Shown: positions 49,926 through 56,144, counted from the stretch's first letter. The stretch is 64,000 nt of DNA from an uncultured Caulobacterales bacterium (GCA_903900155.1 CAIUMD010000062.1:124001-188000); one strand, 5' to 3'. A program made the numbers and translations. Notes: generated from the sequence alone by a model not told the origin.

Positions 49926-51524
49926 ATGAGCAAGTCCCCCGCCGCTGAAGCCGCCCGTCGACGCACGTTCGCCATCATCAGCCACCCCGACGCCGGTAAG
50001 ACGACCCTGACGGAAAACCTGCTGCTGGCCGGCGGGGCGATCCGGGCCGCCGGCGCGGTGCGGGCGCGCGGCCAGATCCGCCGCACCCAGTCGGACTGGA
50101 TGAAGATCGAGCGCGAGCGCGGCATTTCGGTCTCGGCCTCGGTGATGACATTCGACCACGACGGCCTGATGTTCAACCTGCTGGACACGCCAGGCCACGA
50201 AGACTTCTCGGAAGACACCTACCGCACCCTGACGGCCGCCGACGCGGCGATCATGGTGCTGGACGCGGCCAAGGGCATCGAGCCCCAGACCCTGAAGCTG
50301 TTCGAGGTGTGCCGCCTGCGCGACATCCCGATCATCACCTTCATCAACAAGATGGACCGCGAGGCCCAGGACCCGTTCGAGCTCTTGGACGAGGTCTCGT
50401 CCAAGCTGGCGCTGGACCCGGCGCCGCTGTACTGGCCGGCCGGTTCGGGCGGCCGTTTCAAGGGCATGCTGGACCTGCGCAACGACAAGTTCATCCCGTA
50501 CGCCAAGAAGAGCTCGACCGACGAGGAGGGCCATCCCGACCCGATCGCCTTCAAGGGCAATGCGGTGGTCCAGTACCTGGACCCCGAGGAGAAGGCCGAG
50601 CTGGAAGACAACGCCATGCTGGTCACCGAAGCCGGCAAGCCGTTCGACGTCCAGAGCTTCCTGGAAGGCCACATGACGCCGGTGTTCTTCGGCTCGGCCC
50701 TGCGCCACTTCGGCGTGTCGGAGCTCTTGGGCGGCATCGGCGCCTACGCCCCGGCCCCGCATCCGGCCAAGGTCAACAAGGCCGGCGTCGACACCCATGT
50801 CGCCCCAGGCGACAACGAGGTCTCGGGCTTCGTGTTCAAGGTCCAGGCGAACATGGACCCCAACCACCGTGACCGGATCGCCTTCCTGCGCCTGACCAGC
50901 GGCCGCTTCACGCGCGGCATGAAGCTGAAGGCCCAGAACACCGGCAAGGCCATGAGCGTCAACGCGCCGATCATGTTCTTCGCCAGCGACCGCGAGCTGG
51001 CCGAGGACGCCTTCGCCGGCGACGTGATCGGCATCCCCAACCATGGCGTCCTGCGGGTGGGCGACAGCCTGTCCGAGACCGGCGCCCTGCGCTTTGCCGG
51101 CCTGCCTAACTTCGCCCCTGAAATCCTGCGCCGCGTGCGCGTCAAGGACCCGCTGAAGGCCAAGCACCTGAAGAAGGCGCTGGAAGGCCTGGCCGAAGAG
51201 GGCGTCACACAGCTGTTCCGTCCGATGATCGGCAGCGACTTCATCGTCGGCGCCGTCGGCCAGCTGCAGTTCGAGGTCATGGCCGACCGCCTGGCCAACG
51301 AATACCAGTTGGAATGCATCTTCGAAGCCAGCCCCTATGCCGAAGCCCGCTGGCTGTCGGGCGATCGGGCCGACGTCGAGGACTTCGTGGGCAAGCACAA
51401 GTCGGCCATGGGCCAGGACATCGACGAACAGCCCGTGTTCCTGGGCAAGTCGGCCTGGGAGATCGGCTATGTCGCCGAGCGCTATCCGAAAGTGCGCTTC
51501 GAGCGGACTAAGGAACGCGCCTAG
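49926..51524 (+). CDS. prfC: peptide chain release factor 3
   Basis: RRTFAIISHPDAGKTTLTENLLLAGGAIRAAGAVRARG; LDTPGHEDFSEDTYRTLTAADAAIMVLDAAKGIEPQT. Confidence 0.97.
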   Translation: MSKSPAAEAARRRTFAIISHPDAGKTTLTENLLLAGGAIRAAGAVRARGQIRRTQSDWMKIERERGISVSASVMTFDHDGLMFNLLDTPGHEDFSEDTYRTLTAADAAIMVLDAAKGIEPQTLKLFEVCRLRDIPIITFINKMDREAQDPFELLDEVSSKLALDPAPLYWPAGSGGRFKGMLDLRNDKFIPYAKKSSTDEEGHPDPIAFKGNAVVQYLDPEEKAELEDNAMLVTEAGKPFDVQSFLEGHMTPVFFGSALRHFGVSELLGGIGAYAPAPHPAKVNKAGVDTHVAPGDNEVSGFVFKVQANMDPNHRDRIAFLRLTSGRFTRGMKLKAQNTGKAMSVNAPIMFFASDRELAEDAFAGDVIGIPNHGVLRVGDSLSETGALRFAGLPNFAPEILRRVRVKDPLKAKHLKKALEGLAEEGVTQLFRPMIGSDFIVGAVGQLQFEVMADRLANEYQLECIFEASPYAEARWLSGDRADVEDFVGKHKSAMGQDIDEQPVFLGKSAWEIGYVAERYPKVRFERTKERA

Positions 51525-52339
51525 CGCCCGCGACGGCTGTCGTCAGGGCCGTCGGCGATCGCCTGCAGGCGCTGGTAGACGGCCTTGATCTCCGGGTCGG
51601 TCGTGTTGATGGCATAGGCCTTGGCGGCCGCGCGGCGGGCTTCGATCAGGTCCGGCGGCGCGCCGCCCTTGCGCTCGAAGCGATCGATCCACGACGCCGC
51701 TTCGACCGTGGCCAGCATGGCGATCTCGGTCTGGGACGCCACGGCCTTCGAAGCCCAGAAGTCCTGCGCCGTCTCGATCGCCCGGTTCGGATGGCCCGCA
51801 TGGCGCTGGAACCAGGCCACGTGCAGGGCGATGTCCGACCACGGCGCGCCTAGGCTATTGGCCAGTTGCCGCCACGACTGAGCCAGTTGCGCGCCCTGAC
51901 GATAGAGCTCGTTGCGCTTCAACGCCCGCACCCACGGCCCGCGCAGGGCGCGCTCGGGCAATATGCCGGCGCGGCGGGCAATCTCGGCGGCGTGGACGGC
52001 TTCCAGGTCGTCGACCGACGCGAAGGGGCGGGGATACTCCTCGCCCAGCTCGGTCTTCATCTGCTGGTGCAGCTTTTCCTGCGGCGAGACGCAGGCCCGG
52101 ACCGCGGCCACGGCCGGATGCTCAGCTGGCGCGACCAGCAGGCAATCGGGCAGACGGGCGAAGGCGATCCGCACGCGGCCGCAAACAATCGCCTGGCGCT
52201 CCAGGTCGACCTGGGTGATCGCCAAAGGCTCATCGCACTCGCCGTCGTCCAGCGCGCAGCCGACCAGCAGACCAGGCTCCGCACCATCGGTCCGCAGCCA
52301 GCGCTGCAGCAGGCGGCCGTCGATCTCGGTTTCGCTCAT
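51521..52339 (-). CDS. hypothetical protein
   Basis: 272 aa ORF; ends overlap prfC stop by 4 bp (convergent). Confidence 0.65.
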   Translation of the reverse strand: MSETEIDGRLLQRWLRTDGAEPGLLVGCALDDGECDEPLAITQVDLERQAIVCGRVRIAFARLPDCLLVAPAEHPAVAAVRACVSPQEKLHQQMKTELGEEYPRPFASVDDLEAVHAAEIARRAGILPERALRGPWVRALKRNELYRQGAQLAQSWRQLANSLGAPWSDIALHVAWFQRHAGHPNRAIETAQDFWASKAVASQTEIAMLATVEAASWIDRFERKGGAPPDLIEARRAAAKAYAINTTDPEIKAVYQRLQAIADGPDDSRRGR

Positions 52340-52501
52340 GAGGGCGGGGATAGCCGGTGAGGGAAGCAGCGTCGACGGCGATATCAGGGTTGGCCGGCTG
52401 AGAAGGCAATGAATCGGCTTTTCGCTCTGGGCGAGTATCAGCCTCTAGCGCGCGTATGTATTGATCTTCTATGGTGAAGTTGTCGGCAGGGCGGGTGCGC
52501 G

Positions 52502-53335
52502 ATGGGCAAGTTCGATCAATTCAAAAATGGTCTGGCGAAATTGGGTCGTGGCGAAAATCTGCCCGCACGGTCGGACGATTCCGCCACCTCAAATCCTCTT
52601 CTCACAGCCGCCAGGCAGTTATCGGCCGATCGATTGCAGGAAAGGGAGATTGATCGTTCCAAGTCTGCACATTTTGCGATCGCGCTGGATGCGACAGGCA
52701 GCATGGCGACGCTACTGCAAAGCGCCAAGGCCTCACTGAGTGAAATCATTCGCCGTGTGACGCATGAGGCGGGGCGACCCATCAAGATCCAGCTCTTTGC
52801 CTACCGCGATTATGATTGCGGCCCGCAGGTGCTGGAGAGCTCGTCGCTGAGCGGTGACGCCAACAATCTGATCGCATGGTTGTCGCGAGTCGAGGCAATG
52901 GGCGGCGGAAGCAATGATGGCGAGGCCATCGAGTTCGCACTGGGTCATATCAAGACCTTGGGCGGCTTTCGCTCGATCATCATCGCCGGCGACGAGCCAC
53001 CGAATGGCCAAGTCTTCTTGGCTTCCCAAGGCAGGGCGCAGAGCCAGACCGCTCAGCAGCTGGCCGCGCGGTTTGGGGCCGACAAGACGCCGATCCATAC
53101 CTTTGTGGTGGGGGATCACGGTCCGACGATCATCGCCTTCCGTGAAATAGCTGACGCGTCTGGTGGCAAGTCCGGCAGGCTGGATGGCTCGGCGGCTATG
53201 ATTGACATGGCCGTTCTGGCGATGCTTGCCACGTTGAAAGGGAAGCAAGGTGTTCGGGACTACGTCGCCCGGACCGCCTTGACCTCCAACGCAGCGGCAT
53301 TTGCCACGCTGCTCTTGGGCGACTCTTCCAAATGA
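52502..53335 (+). CDS. vWA domain protein
   Basis: KSAHFAIALDATGSMATLLQSAKASLSEIIRRV (MIDAS DxTxS), QLFAYRDYDCGPQVLE, GGGSNDGEAIEFALGH. Confidence 0.85.
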   Translation: MGKFDQFKNGLAKLGRGENLPARSDDSATSNPLLTAARQLSADRLQEREIDRSKSAHFAIALDATGSMATLLQSAKASLSEIIRRVTHEAGRPIKIQLFAYRDYDCGPQVLESSSLSGDANNLIAWLSRVEAMGGGSNDGEAIEFALGHIKTLGGFRSIIIAGDEPPNGQVFLASQGRAQSQTAQQLAARFGADKTPIHTFVVGDHGPTIIAFREIADASGGKSGRLDGSAAMIDMAVLAMLATLKGKQGVRDYVARTALTSNAAAFATLLLGDSSK

Positions 53336-54117
53336 GACCCAAGACCTGGTCTTATAGCCGAGTCGCCATGGCGGCTGTCGCTGCGAGCGTATGCGCCAAT
53401 CTCTTCCAGGCCGTCACCGGGACCGAATTGTGGATCCTGGCCATGGCCAATCTGGCATGCTTGGTGATGCTCAGCACGACCGCAGTCCGCTTTCACAAGG
53501 AGAACCGTCCGGGCTTTGACCCGGTGGTCGCGGCCGAGACTATCGTGGCTTTCGGCGTCACCTCGCTGATCCTCAGTCTGGTCAGCGCGGCCTATCCTTT
53601 GCTCACCGGCGACGCCCTAGGCGATGTCTTCAAGAAGGAAGGGGTGATGCGCGTCGTGACCCCCTTCCTGGAGGGGTTGGCGACCGCCGGTCTGGCGCCG
53701 CTGTTCGCGATGGTTCTGCGGAATCGCGTGGCTGAGCTGGATGGCGCCGGCGATGCGGTAGGTGACGTGACGGGCATGACACGGGCCATGGCCGGACTGA
53801 CCCGCGAGATGGAGAGCGCGCGTGCTGGCGTGATGGAGCTGCAGGCGGCGCTGAAGGCCGCGTCAGCTTCGACGAAAAGCTTGGCCGACAATGTTCAGAC
53901 GGAAGGCGAGCGTTTGAAGCTCGTTCTTCTTGAAACACAGGCAGAGTTGAAAGGATTTAGCGGGGCCGCAGGCGCGGGCCGCACGGAGGTCGGCGGCTTG
54001 GCGACCGAAACAGCCAAGCTCAAATCGTCCGTGACGGACACGGGCGTGCTCATGGATGCCTTGGCCAAGTTGATCGAGTCGGTCGAACGCTTTGTGGCGC
54101 CCAGCGGGCGTCGCTGA
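53332..54117 (+). CDS. multi-TM protein with C-terminal coiled coil (MotA/ZorA-like topology)
   Basis: Three to four N-terminal hydrophobic segments, FLEGLATAGLAPLFAMVLRN, then long heptad-rich region; ATGA overlap with vWA gene. Confidence 0.7.
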   Translation: MRPKTWSYSRVAMAAVAASVCANLFQAVTGTELWILAMANLACLVMLSTTAVRFHKENRPGFDPVVAAETIVAFGVTSLILSLVSAAYPLLTGDALGDVFKKEGVMRVVTPFLEGLATAGLAPLFAMVLRNRVAELDGAGDAVGDVTGMTRAMAGLTREMESARAGVMELQAALKAASASTKSLADNVQTEGERLKLVLLETQAELKGFSGAAGAGRTEVGGLATETAKLKSSVTDTGVLMDALAKLIESVERFVAPSGRR

Positions 54118-54119
54118 CC

Positions 54120-54725
54120 ATGAAGATGCGATCGCGCGCCCATAGCAGTCTCCACCTGCAGATGGGACAAGAGACCCTCTATCTGCTGCTGACGTCCGCG
54201 ATCTTCGTGTCGATCCTGCTGATCGCCTACATCGCCTACGAACGGCGCCACTATGAGGATCCGCCGATCGTCACCCTGCGCGAAGCGGACGGCTTCTATT
54301 TCAAGCCCGGATCCTCGCTGGTCAGTAGACAGTTCGACCAGCAGCTAAGCCAGCACGTGGCTCCGAAGCTGCGCGAATTCGCCGATCGCTACGATGCACA
54401 TGTGATCGAGGTCATCGGGCATACCGACGAGGTGGCGGTATCGATGGGCAGTGGAAATCTCGACGCTACTCTAGGGCCGCTGTTCACCGGCCGGCGCGCG
54501 GCAGAGCCCGTGCCCGCCGACAACGCCGGGCTGGGCCTAGCGCGAGCGGTTGCCGTATCGCGCGCGCTGAAGCGGGCGGGTGTCGATCAGGGATATGTCA
54601 TTGTTCCACTGTCGGCCGGTCCGTTTCTAAGACCTGACGATACGGTTTCGGATGGGCGGTCACGCAAGGCGGACAAGGTTCGACGGCGTATCGAGATCCG
54701 ACTTCGTCGACCTCACACCCGATAG
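54120..54725 (+). CDS. single-TM protein with OmpA/MotB-like C-terminal domain (ZorB-like topology)
   Basis: LYLLLTSAIFVSILLIAYIAY TM; FYFKPGSSLVSRQF...VIEVIGHTDEVAVSMGSGNLD...RAVAVSRALKRAGV...DKVRRRIEIRL. Confidence 0.8.
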   Translation: MKMRSRAHSSLHLQMGQETLYLLLTSAIFVSILLIAYIAYERRHYEDPPIVTLREADGFYFKPGSSLVSRQFDQQLSQHVAPKLREFADRYDAHVIEVIGHTDEVAVSMGSGNLDATLGPLFTGRRAAEPVPADNAGLGLARAVAVSRALKRAGVDQGYVIVPLSAGPFLRPDDTVSDGRSRKADKVRRRIEIRLRRPHTR

Positions 54726-55996
54726 CCTTTCCGCAGGATGTCGCGTGCCTGGTTGCCCAGTACGCTGAGAGCTTCACGCCGCTCGCGTTCTTCCTTGGTC
54801 TGCTCGCCCATATCCGGGTGGTGTAGGCGCTGATAGGCGCGGAAAGCCTTGGTCACCATCGCCTCGGTCGGGTCGCTGTCGATCGACAGGCCCAGGACCT
54901 CGAGCGCCCATTTCCTGTCCTTTATCGAGCCAGGATCGCTCTTGCCGCCAGCAGATCCGGACTTGCCCGATCCGCCGCCGTGGCTCCCACCTGTTGCTCC
55001 ACCAGGTCCAGCCGCACGCATGGCTTCGGCGTGGATCGCTTCTAGTTGATGGAGAACCTCTTCCAGGACGCCGAGGCTCTCTGAAACGGCGTCGATCGTC
55101 GTGTCGCGCGTCGTCTGCAGAGTCTCTGTCAGAGAATCGAACAGGCTGGTCTGCTCATCGAACTGAATACGTTCGGGGCCCGTGTCCCAGGCTTCGGGCC
55201 ATAGATCGATCAACGCGTTGTAGAGCACGGCATAGCGAGATCGGGCCGCATCGAACCGCAGCATCAGGTCCTGGAGTTCTCCGGAAGAGGCCGCGGCAGC
55301 TTCTACGTCATCGGCAGCTATGGACAGTGGATCTTCCAGAGCTTCGGCGACGCTATCCAGGAAGACGTTGAAAAGGCCAATGCGGCGGTCTTCGGGCCAG
55401 ATGTCGCCCTGACGGTGGATACGCTGGAAGATCGCGACCGTTCTGGCCGTCTCTCGCACCAGATCGTAGTCGCCGGAAGAAAGGCGGGCCTCGATCCGGG
55501 CCTTTACGTCGGGGCGGAGGTGCTGGAACGCGTCGCCGACCTCGACGAGCAGGTCCAGAACCGTATTGGCGCGCGCTCTGGCGGTTTCATCCCTTGCCCT
55601 CAGCGCCTTGGGCTCGACACCGATCCGATCGAAGAAGACGGAGATGCCGTCCGCGATGTCGTCGGCCTCGTCCGTAAAGCCCCAGACGTGTCCCGGAACG
55701 ACCTCCAGGCCTAGTTGGTCGAAGATATCGAACACCGCCGCGCGGCGCAGTCTGCGCACTTTCAGGTCCAGAAGAGAGCCGGTGAGACCCGGCATAGCAG
55801 TGGCGCGAGCGGAGCGCGGCGAAGCCGGGGCTTCCGTGTGTGGCACGAAGGGGCGGGCAGCTGCTTCGAACGCGGTCTCGAAAACCCCGCCGGGCCGGGG
55901 TGGACTGAACGTGTCGCCATACAGAGGCGTCCGCCAGCTCGCGGCGCCGCGAAACCAAGCGATTAAAGATCTCCAGACCCCAGCGAAATCCAGCAC
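54713..55996 (-). CDS. J-domain protein (C-terminal DnaJ-like domain)
   Basis: C-terminal WALEVLGLSIDSDPTEAMVTKAFRAYQRLHHPDMGEQTKEERERREALSVLGNQARDILRKGY with HPD motif; GSHGGGSGKSGSAGGK linker. Confidence 0.85.
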   Translation of the reverse strand: MLDFAGVWRSLIAWFRGAASWRTPLYGDTFSPPRPGGVFETAFEAAARPFVPHTEAPASPRSARATAMPGLTGSLLDLKVRRLRRAAVFDIFDQLGLEVVPGHVWGFTDEADDIADGISVFFDRIGVEPKALRARDETARARANTVLDLLVEVGDAFQHLRPDVKARIEARLSSGDYDLVRETARTVAIFQRIHRQGDIWPEDRRIGLFNVFLDSVAEALEDPLSIAADDVEAAAASSGELQDLMLRFDAARSRYAVLYNALIDLWPEAWDTGPERIQFDEQTSLFDSLTETLQTTRDTTIDAVSESLGVLEEVLHQLEAIHAEAMRAAGPGGATGGSHGGGSGKSGSAGGKSDPGSIKDRKWALEVLGLSIDSDPTEAMVTKAFRAYQRLHHPDMGEQTKEERERREALSVLGNQARDILRKGYRV

Positions 55997-56144
55997 CTGA
56001 CGTCCTCAATGTCCGCGCGATCAGGCGCGCAGCTTCAGCTGTGGCGGGCGTGATTTCAACCGCTGGATCAATCGTGGCACGTTGCCTCGGGACAAGCCCT
56101 TGATTCGATCAGGTCGGCGCAAAGGGTTTCCATGGAGCTTCCGC

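What the first reader, a model, noticed from the sequence alone, without database searches (positions are those of the whole stretch)
52502..55996. Candidate undescribed cassette: vWA + ZorA-like coiled-coil membrane protein + OmpA/MotB-like protein, converging on a J-domain protein
Seen directly: three tightly packed plus-strand genes (ATGA overlap at 53332-53335; 2-nt gap at 54118-54119) encode a vWA protein, a protein with several N-terminal TM segments and a long coiled coil, and a single-TM protein with an OmpA-like peptidoglycan-binding domain. A fourth gene on the other strand overlaps the third by 13 bp at the 3' ends and carries a C-terminal J domain with HPD. Established: MotA/MotB-like pairs such as ZorA/ZorB anchor Zorya anti-phage systems, and vWA and J-domain proteins occur in conflict and chaperone-coupled systems. 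Inference: this is a discrete module, possibly envelope-sensing or anti-phage, inserted between prfC and mgsA neighbourhoods. No ZorC, ZorD or ZorE effector and no nuclease is visible, so it would not be a canonical Zorya system.
Basis: partly seen in the sequence, partly recalled or inferred. Interest (0 to 1): 0.78.

Follow-up and report, generated by a model that had tools for sequence, protein, structure and literature searches.

The report
Mobile cell-wall-anchored membrane gene module
Four neighbouring genes form a small, horizontally acquired cassette that probably builds a cell-wall-gripping membrane complex wired to two cytoplasmic partner proteins; its membrane core recurs in unrelated genomic places, twice next to a phosphorylation switch of a type linked to anti-phage systems, but its job is untested.

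Summary
In detail: V (vWA), C (four TM helices plus coiled coil) and O (one TM plus OmpA domain) are packed at 52502-54725. J (C-terminal J domain) converges on O.

The unit is a discrete accessory insertion. A relative has 59 bp where the window has about 3.76 kb. GC3 is 0.69-0.77 against about 0.9 in most neighbouring genes. C has no orthologue in 36 congeners.

The core C-O-J recurs in four Sphingomonadales loci in three other genomic contexts. V is not in those genomes. Two of the loci instead carry a divergent vWA-PP2C-kinase (TerY-P-like) triad directly upstream of C. A C-O pair also occurs on a contig binned as Patescibacteria. More distant O relatives end a conserved four-gene operon in Hyphomicrobiales, often beside a secreted nuclease.

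The MotA/ZorA relation of C is not shown by sequence, and the fold search is only suggestive. O keeps peptidoglycan-binding residues and carries a conserved TM Glu where MotB/ZorB have Asp.

It is not Zorya. Best reading: a peptidoglycan-anchored, MotAB/ZorAB-like envelope sensor or motor with swappable cytoplasmic vWA partners and a J-protein. An anti-phage role is plausible but unproven. New variant of a known kind.

The parts
52502..53335 (+). V: vWA-domain protein, 277 aa, predicted cytoplasmic; MIDAS-like DATGS at residues 63-67, middle Thr not conserved
   Evidence: Pfam VWA_4 27.5 bits, cut-off 27; motif and hydropathy; GC3 0.69
53332..54117 (+). C: four TM helices (about 6-29, 34-57, 64-91, 102-137) and a C-terminal coiled coil (143-209, 221-255); putative A subunit of a MotA/ZorA-like complex (inference)
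   Evidence: AlphaFold model m0699957302c2; TM prediction; homologues in L029, L030, L031, L034 and L036
54120..54725 (+). O: single TM with conserved Glu18 at its cytoplasmic edge, then a periplasmic OmpA-like peptidoglycan-binding domain (GHTD Asp103, Arg142)
   Evidence: Pfam OmpA E 1.5e-5; alignments A1 and A3; TM acid, Glu in 82 of 85 by the per-protein count
54713..55996 (-). J: disordered N terminus, helical domain (73-330), Gly/Ser linker, C-terminal J domain with HPD (393-395)
   Evidence: AlphaFold model mb81c5db3926a, pLDDT about 90 over 73-330 and 80-90 over 361-420; weak Pfam DnaJ; relatives aligned
52383..56141 (.). Approximate extent of the insertion: conserved flanks end at 52382 and resume at 56142 against relative G012 (L129), which has 59 bp here; G031 (L128) has 764 unrelated bp
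   Evidence: blastn of flanks; GC dip 0.59-0.64

Best explanation
The four genes are a horizontally acquired accessory module that builds an envelope-spanning complex. C and O form the membrane core, laid out like MotA/MotB or ZorA/ZorB. C gives a multi-helix membrane ring with a cytoplasmic coiled-coil tail. O gives one TM helix with an acidic residue (Glu18) in the position of the ion-carrying Asp of MotB/TolR/ZorB, plus a periplasmic domain that grips peptidoglycan. A perturbation of the envelope, such as phage entry or wall damage, would engage the OmpA domain, open or move the core, and pass the signal down the coiled coil. In the cytoplasm the signal would be read by a vWA protein: V here, or a TerY-type vWA with PP2C phosphatase and kinase in two relatives. 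The J-protein would bring Hsp70 (DnaK) to load, release or reset the vWA/coiled-coil complex. Shown: gene arrangement, recent acquisition, recurrence of C-O-J, swapping of the vWA part, OmpA domain with conserved binding residues, conserved TM Glu, HPD motif. Inferred: C-O complex, ion flow, envelope sensing, vWA as output, Hsp70 recruitment. An anti-phage purpose is a guess.
For: C-O-> <-J is kept in L029, L034, L031 and L030: same order, tight C-O overlap, convergent J (alignments). O is 54-57% identical to these and C 33-40%. The contexts differ: thrB-rnhA (L029, L034), prs/sucC (L030), MerR/prfC (L031) (gene names read from sequence). A C-O pair also lies on L036 (C: E 2.7e-9). L030 and L031 carry vWA, PP2C_2 and kinase genes divergently, about 80-130 bp from C; the L031 kinase ends in a Cys/His cluster typical of a zinc ribbon. 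A vWA or vWA-like gene is also beside the rhizobial C-O pair. O keeps GHTDE in all 85 distinct homologues and the Arg equivalent to OmpA/Pal in 82; the TM acid is Glu alone in 80, with 82 of 85 carrying a Glu there. Topology of C by hydropathy and AlphaFold is N-in, four TM, C-in. In the Foldseek top 50, 28 chains are PomA, MotA, TolQ, ExbB or ZorA. ZorAB is a 5:2 motor that needs peptidoglycan binding, the ZorB Asp and the ZorA tail (PMC11890865). Insertion. Rarity: 1 of 385 alphaproteobacterial genomes with C; 1 of 301 in the family of G454 with O.
Against: No sequence test links C to MotA/TolQ/ZorA: no Pfam or PADLOC hit, and hhalign against 30 TolQ-type sequences does no better than a reversed control. 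Foldseek E-values for this family are 0.17 or worse, and the C model is only moderate (pLDDT about 75 in the TM part). The Thr that could line a pore in TM4 is Ala in L030 and L031. V is not found with C-O-J anywhere else. The J domain of L030 has HPA instead of HPD. The window has no known defence neighbours. C-O-J was seen in only five loci.
Confidence: 0.5

Rival explanations
1. It is an anti-phage (or anti-plasmid) defence cassette, a Zorya analogue whose effector is V/J or, in relatives, the TerY-P triad or the secreted nuclease.
For: Sporadic, mobile distribution. TerY-P-like triad beside C in L030 and L031; related modules are reported as antiphage (PMC11090510). Secreted SNase-like gene in 33 of 90 loci of the O family (Pfam SNase). 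Zorya uses the same kind of C-O pair (PMC11890865).
Against: No nuclease or helicase in the window cassette or found in the C-O-J units of the Sphingomonadales loci; no PADLOC family for V, C or J; housekeeping flanks; occupants of the same site in relatives are metabolic or unknown genes.
Confidence: 0.3
2. It is an envelope or metal stress-response module (Ter-like) that reports cell-wall state to a vWA/kinase switch, unrelated to phages.
For: TerY-P triads are proposed as metal-sensing phosphorylation switches (PMC11090510). vWA and J-domain genes are paired in other alphaproteobacteria (L014, L015).
Against: Very sporadic distribution fits conflict genes better than a physiological stress system; no TerB/C/D/E genes are seen near it.
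Confidence: 0.25
3. C and O are a peptidoglycan-anchored coiled-coil scaffold or trans-envelope force transducer without ion flow, unrelated by descent to MotA.
For: No sequence link of C to MotA/TolQ; Ala at the TM4 Thr position in L030 and L031; Glu18 sits at the edge of the hydrophobic core.
Against: TM acid strongly conserved across O; A-before-B gene order as in other stator-type pairs (PMC12505986); composition of the Foldseek top 50.
Confidence: 0.25
4. Chance neighbours: V-C-O is an operon but J is unrelated, or the gene set is a mosaic with no common function.
For: V is absent elsewhere; J is on the opposite strand.
Against: J is convergent with O in all five loci of the group, in four genomic contexts; shared atypical GC3; single clean insertion.
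Confidence: 0.08

Closest known systems
Zorya (ZorA/ZorB core, types I-III)
   Same: Membrane protein with cytoplasmic coiled-coil tail followed by a single-TM OmpA-domain peptidoglycan binder; accessory, sporadic; rhizobial O matches ZorB at E 8e-6
   Different: No ZorC/D, ZorE or ZorF/G; no ZorA hit; TM acid is Glu, not Asp; shorter tail; vWA and J-domain partners instead of helicase or nuclease
TerY-P triad (vWA, PP2C, Ser/Thr kinase with zinc ribbon; Anantharaman 2012 as cited in PMC11090510)
   Same: A vWA, PP2C_2 and kinase set is directly divergent from C-O-J in L030 and L031
   Different: Absent from the window; V is not detectably related to the L031 vWA; TerY-P neighbours described in PMC11090510 are restriction/DNA-processing (CoCoNuT) and tellurite-resistance genes, not a TM-coiled coil/OmpA pair
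vWA force transducers beside tolQ/tolR-like genes (PMC12204202)
   Same: vWA genes linked to MotA/TolQ-type motor genes, function unknown
   Different: There the vWA is membrane-tethered and is itself the transducer or pore helix; here V is predicted soluble, with a separate OmpA-domain protein and a J-protein
MotAB / TolQR / ExbBD stator family
   Same: Gene order A-B, B subunit with acidic TM residue, peptidoglycan-binding B domain in MotB
   Different: C lacks PF01618 and any profile similarity; no large cytoplasmic loop between TM2 and TM3; coiled-coil tail
vWA plus membrane J-domain gene pair (L014, L015)
   Same: vWA (24% identity to V, E 3e-9) next to a gene with an HPD J domain
   Different: No C or O; J-protein is a small membrane protein with a different body

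Membership tests
Zorya defence system | ZorA (PADLOC models) in C | tested here: not met
   No PADLOC hit for C even at E 1; weak coiled-coil matches only for rhizobial C
Zorya defence system | ZorB (peptidoglycan-binding, single TM) in O | tested here: inconclusive
   O matches ZorB3 at E 0.022 over residues 133-193; rhizobial O matches ZorB1 at 8e-6
Zorya defence system | Effector ZorC+ZorD, ZorE or ZorF+ZorG | tested here: not met
   V and J hit none of the 5027 PADLOC models; no further gene in the insertion
Zorya defence system | Conserved Asp in the ZorB TM helix | tested here: not met
   Glu18 in O; Glu in 82 of 85 homologues by the count; Asp needed in ZorB (PMC11890865)
Zorya defence system | Anti-phage activity | not testable with these tools
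   Needs phage challenge
MotA/TolQ/ExbB (PF01618) for C | Sequence membership in PF01618 or profile similarity | tested here: not met
   No Pfam match; hhalign against 30 TolQ-type sequences no better than reversed control
MotA/TolQ/ExbB (PF01618) for C | Fold of the stator A subunit | tested here: inconclusive
   28 of the top 50 PDB chains are PomA, MotA, TolQ, ExbB or ZorA, but the best E among them is 0.17
MotA/TolQ/ExbB (PF01618) for C | 5:2 assembly with B subunit | not testable with these tools
OmpA-like peptidoglycan-binding domain (PF00691) for O | Domain match with conserved Asp and Arg of the binding site | tested here: met
   E 1.5e-5, 1.5 bits under the cut-off, in the window; relative L020 over the cut-off; GHTDE in 85 and Arg in 82 of 85
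vWA domain for V | Pfam vWA above cut-off and MIDAS | tested here: met
   VWA_4 27.5 bits against 27; DATGS at 63; middle MIDAS Thr not conserved
J-domain protein for J | J domain with HPD between helices II and III | tested here: met
   HPD 393-395, helices 378-392 and 401-426; Pfam under cut-off, 17.8 against 27.8; HPA in L030
TerY-P triad | vWA + PP2C + kinase together | tested here: not met
   Window has no PP2C or kinase in the cassette; triad present at L030 and L031

The most novel reading that the evidence does not exclude
C-O is a divergent ion-driven, peptidoglycan-anchored rotary unit (Glu instead of Asp) that serves as an interchangeable membrane front end for cytoplasmic vWA switches (V with a J-protein, or a TerY-P kinase/phosphatase triad). 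It would be a new class of envelope-triggered conflict system that joins Zorya-like sensing to Ter-type phosphosignalling.
Probability: 0.3. Interest if true: 0.8.

Novelty: new variant of a known kind. Interest (0 to 1): 0.55.

Why it matters
How Zorya-type membrane units sense infection and what they can drive is still open. A related C-O core with other partners (vWA, J-protein, kinase/phosphatase triad, secreted nuclease) would show that a peptidoglycan-gripping membrane sensor is a reusable part, and would give TerY-P switches a physical input at the envelope. The small four-gene window cassette is easy to move and test in laboratory strains.

Tried and rejected
Sequence proof of MotA homology of C: Pfam, PADLOC, PDB profile search and hhalign against TolQ-type sequences, with reversed controls; all negative or coiled-coil noise.

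Homology of window C to rhizobial C: the whole-length hhalign E of 1.5e-4 vanished when only the TM part was compared, so it is rejected as coiled-coil bias.

Homology of V to the rhizobial vWA-like protein, and of J to the rhizobial 480-aa protein: none. V against the TerY-type vWA of L031: none.

Plasmid search with C and J, phage-record search with O: no match. V hits in other alphaproteobacteria have no C-O beside them where inspected.

Defence hotspot at the insertion site: relatives carry a GH53-like glycosidase, a HisC-like aminotransferase or unknown genes there (read from sequence). Fold search of J: no known fold for the helical body. PADLOC on the L030/L031 triads: only weak PD-T4-6 kinase matches.

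Full report
WHAT IS THERE. V is a vWA protein (Pfam VWA_4 above cut-off), O has an OmpA-like domain, J has a weak C-terminal DnaJ match with HPD, and C matches no family. C has four hydrophobic segments, O has one and J none; V's single weak peak falls within its vWA domain. The AlphaFold model of C (five sequences, mean pLDDT 58, about 75 in the first 140 residues) has four helices then a coiled coil. The model of J is good (pLDDT about 90 over residues 73-330, 80-90 over most of 361-420): a helical body of no known fold, a flexible linker, then a J domain.

A DISCRETE INSERTION. Against relative G012 the conserved flanks stop at window 52382 and resume at 56142, with only 59 bp between them there. 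Against G031 (about 92% identical flanks) 764 unrelated bp sit in that place. GC falls to 0.59-0.64, and GC3 of all four genes is 0.69-0.77 against about 0.9 for most other genes of the window. C has no orthologue in 36 genomes of the genus; the one hit is a 23% match within a 1052-aa frame. The four genes therefore most likely came in together, and they are not housekeeping. The site is variable in the genus but is not a defence hotspot.

THE CORE IS C-O-J; THE vWA PART IS SWAPPED. Searching 85,462 species genomes with the O alignment gave 80 loci. The closest group, four Sphingomonadales loci (O 54-57% identical), all have C directly upstream and J convergent downstream. L029 and L034 share one context; L030 and L031 are each elsewhere. 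None of the four genomes has a V relative. In L030 and L031 a vWA, a PP2C phosphatase and a kinase lie divergently right upstream of C. This is the composition of the TerY-P triad described in PMC11090510. A C-O pair without visible J or V lies at the end of contig L036, binned as Patescibacteria (C E 2.7e-9); the binning was not checked. In the family of G454 only 1 of 301 genomes has this O.

A WIDER SISTER SYSTEM. O is also about 38% identical to proteins on rhizobial plasmids. There it ends a conserved four-gene operon: a membrane protein of about 480 aa, a vWA-like protein with an N-terminal TM and two invariant Cys (so probably periplasmic), a TM-coiled coil protein, then O. A signal-peptide-bearing SNase-like gene lies in 33 of 90 loci (counted on the O-containing loci; close relatives are counted singly), often touching the operon and in either orientation. 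The TM-coiled coil protein of this group is not demonstrably homologous to C.

IS IT A MOTOR? O keeps the GHTD Asp in 85 of 85 distinct homologues and the binding Arg in 82. Its TM begins with an acidic residue, Glu in 82 of 85 by the per-protein count. That matches the place of the ion-carrying Asp in MotB/TolR/ZorB, by my recollection of those sequences. C precedes O as A subunits precede B subunits (PMC12505986), and its topology fits. In the Foldseek top 50 for C, 28 chains are PomA, MotA, TolQ, ExbB or ZorA, but none is significant, and several chains come from one entry. Profile comparison with TolQ-type sequences is negative, with a reversed control as yardstick. So 'works like ZorAB/MotAB' is a fair inference and 'is a MotA homologue' is not shown.

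MECHANISM PROPOSED. O grips peptidoglycan; a change in the envelope moves O in the C ring; ion flow or a conformational change runs into the coiled coil; the vWA protein binds or releases; J recruits DnaK to load or reset the assembly. Zorya gives the precedent for peptidoglycan binding, the TM acid and the tail being needed (PMC11890865). The link from vWA to C-O rests on repeated neighbourhood: V in the window, TerY-type in L030 and L031, a vWA-like protein in the rhizobial operon. The role of J rests on HPD and strict linkage; the HPA variant in L030 is a warning.

KNOWN OR NEW. It fails the membership test for Zorya (no effector, no ZorA hit, Glu for Asp) and for TerY-P (no PP2C or kinase in the window cassette). 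Published vWA-motor pairs (PMC12204202) differ in having membrane-tethered vWAs. My literature searches found no description of this combination, within a library that lacks most subscription papers. I call it a new variant of a known kind, with an open chance that it is more.

Noticed in passing
L020, L021, L022, L024-L028 and about 75 loci among L032-L110: Conserved four-gene operon in Hyphomicrobiales, often on plasmids (480-aa membrane protein, vWA-like protein with two invariant Cys, TM-coiled coil protein, OmpA/MotB-like protein), apparently undescribed.
   Followed up: partly
L022:8559-9248, L020:8517-9260, L027:8557-9249 and others: Signal-peptide-bearing SNase-like nuclease gene near this operon in 33 of 90 loci, in different orientations, often directly adjacent: a candidate periplasmic effector.
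   Followed up: partly
L030:5441-7883, L031:5513-7979: TerY-P-like triad (vWA, PP2C_2, kinase) divergent from C-O-J, giving a six-gene unit in two unrelated genomic places.
   Followed up: partly
L036:7944-9471: C-O pair on a contig binned as a Patescibacteria MAG; TM4 has Ser-Ser where the window has Thr-Ala. Contig ends just after O; binning not checked.
   Followed up: partly
L014:6908-8358, L015:6158-7623: Adjacent genes for a vWA protein (24% identical to V) and a membrane-anchored J-domain protein in other alphaproteobacteria.
   Followed up: partly
   Followed up: no
L031:9553-12485; window 49926-51524: prfC lies next to the C-O-J module in L031 and near it in the window; may be coincidence.
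   Followed up: no
window 51524-52339 (-): Uncharacterised 272-aa gene overlapping the prfC stop by 4 nt; in 7 of 46 genomes of the genus, no Pfam family.
   Followed up: partly
L130-L135: The site between the prfC side and mgsA holds different genes in different relatives (GH53-like, HisC-like, unknown), a variable chromosomal spot.
   Followed up: partly
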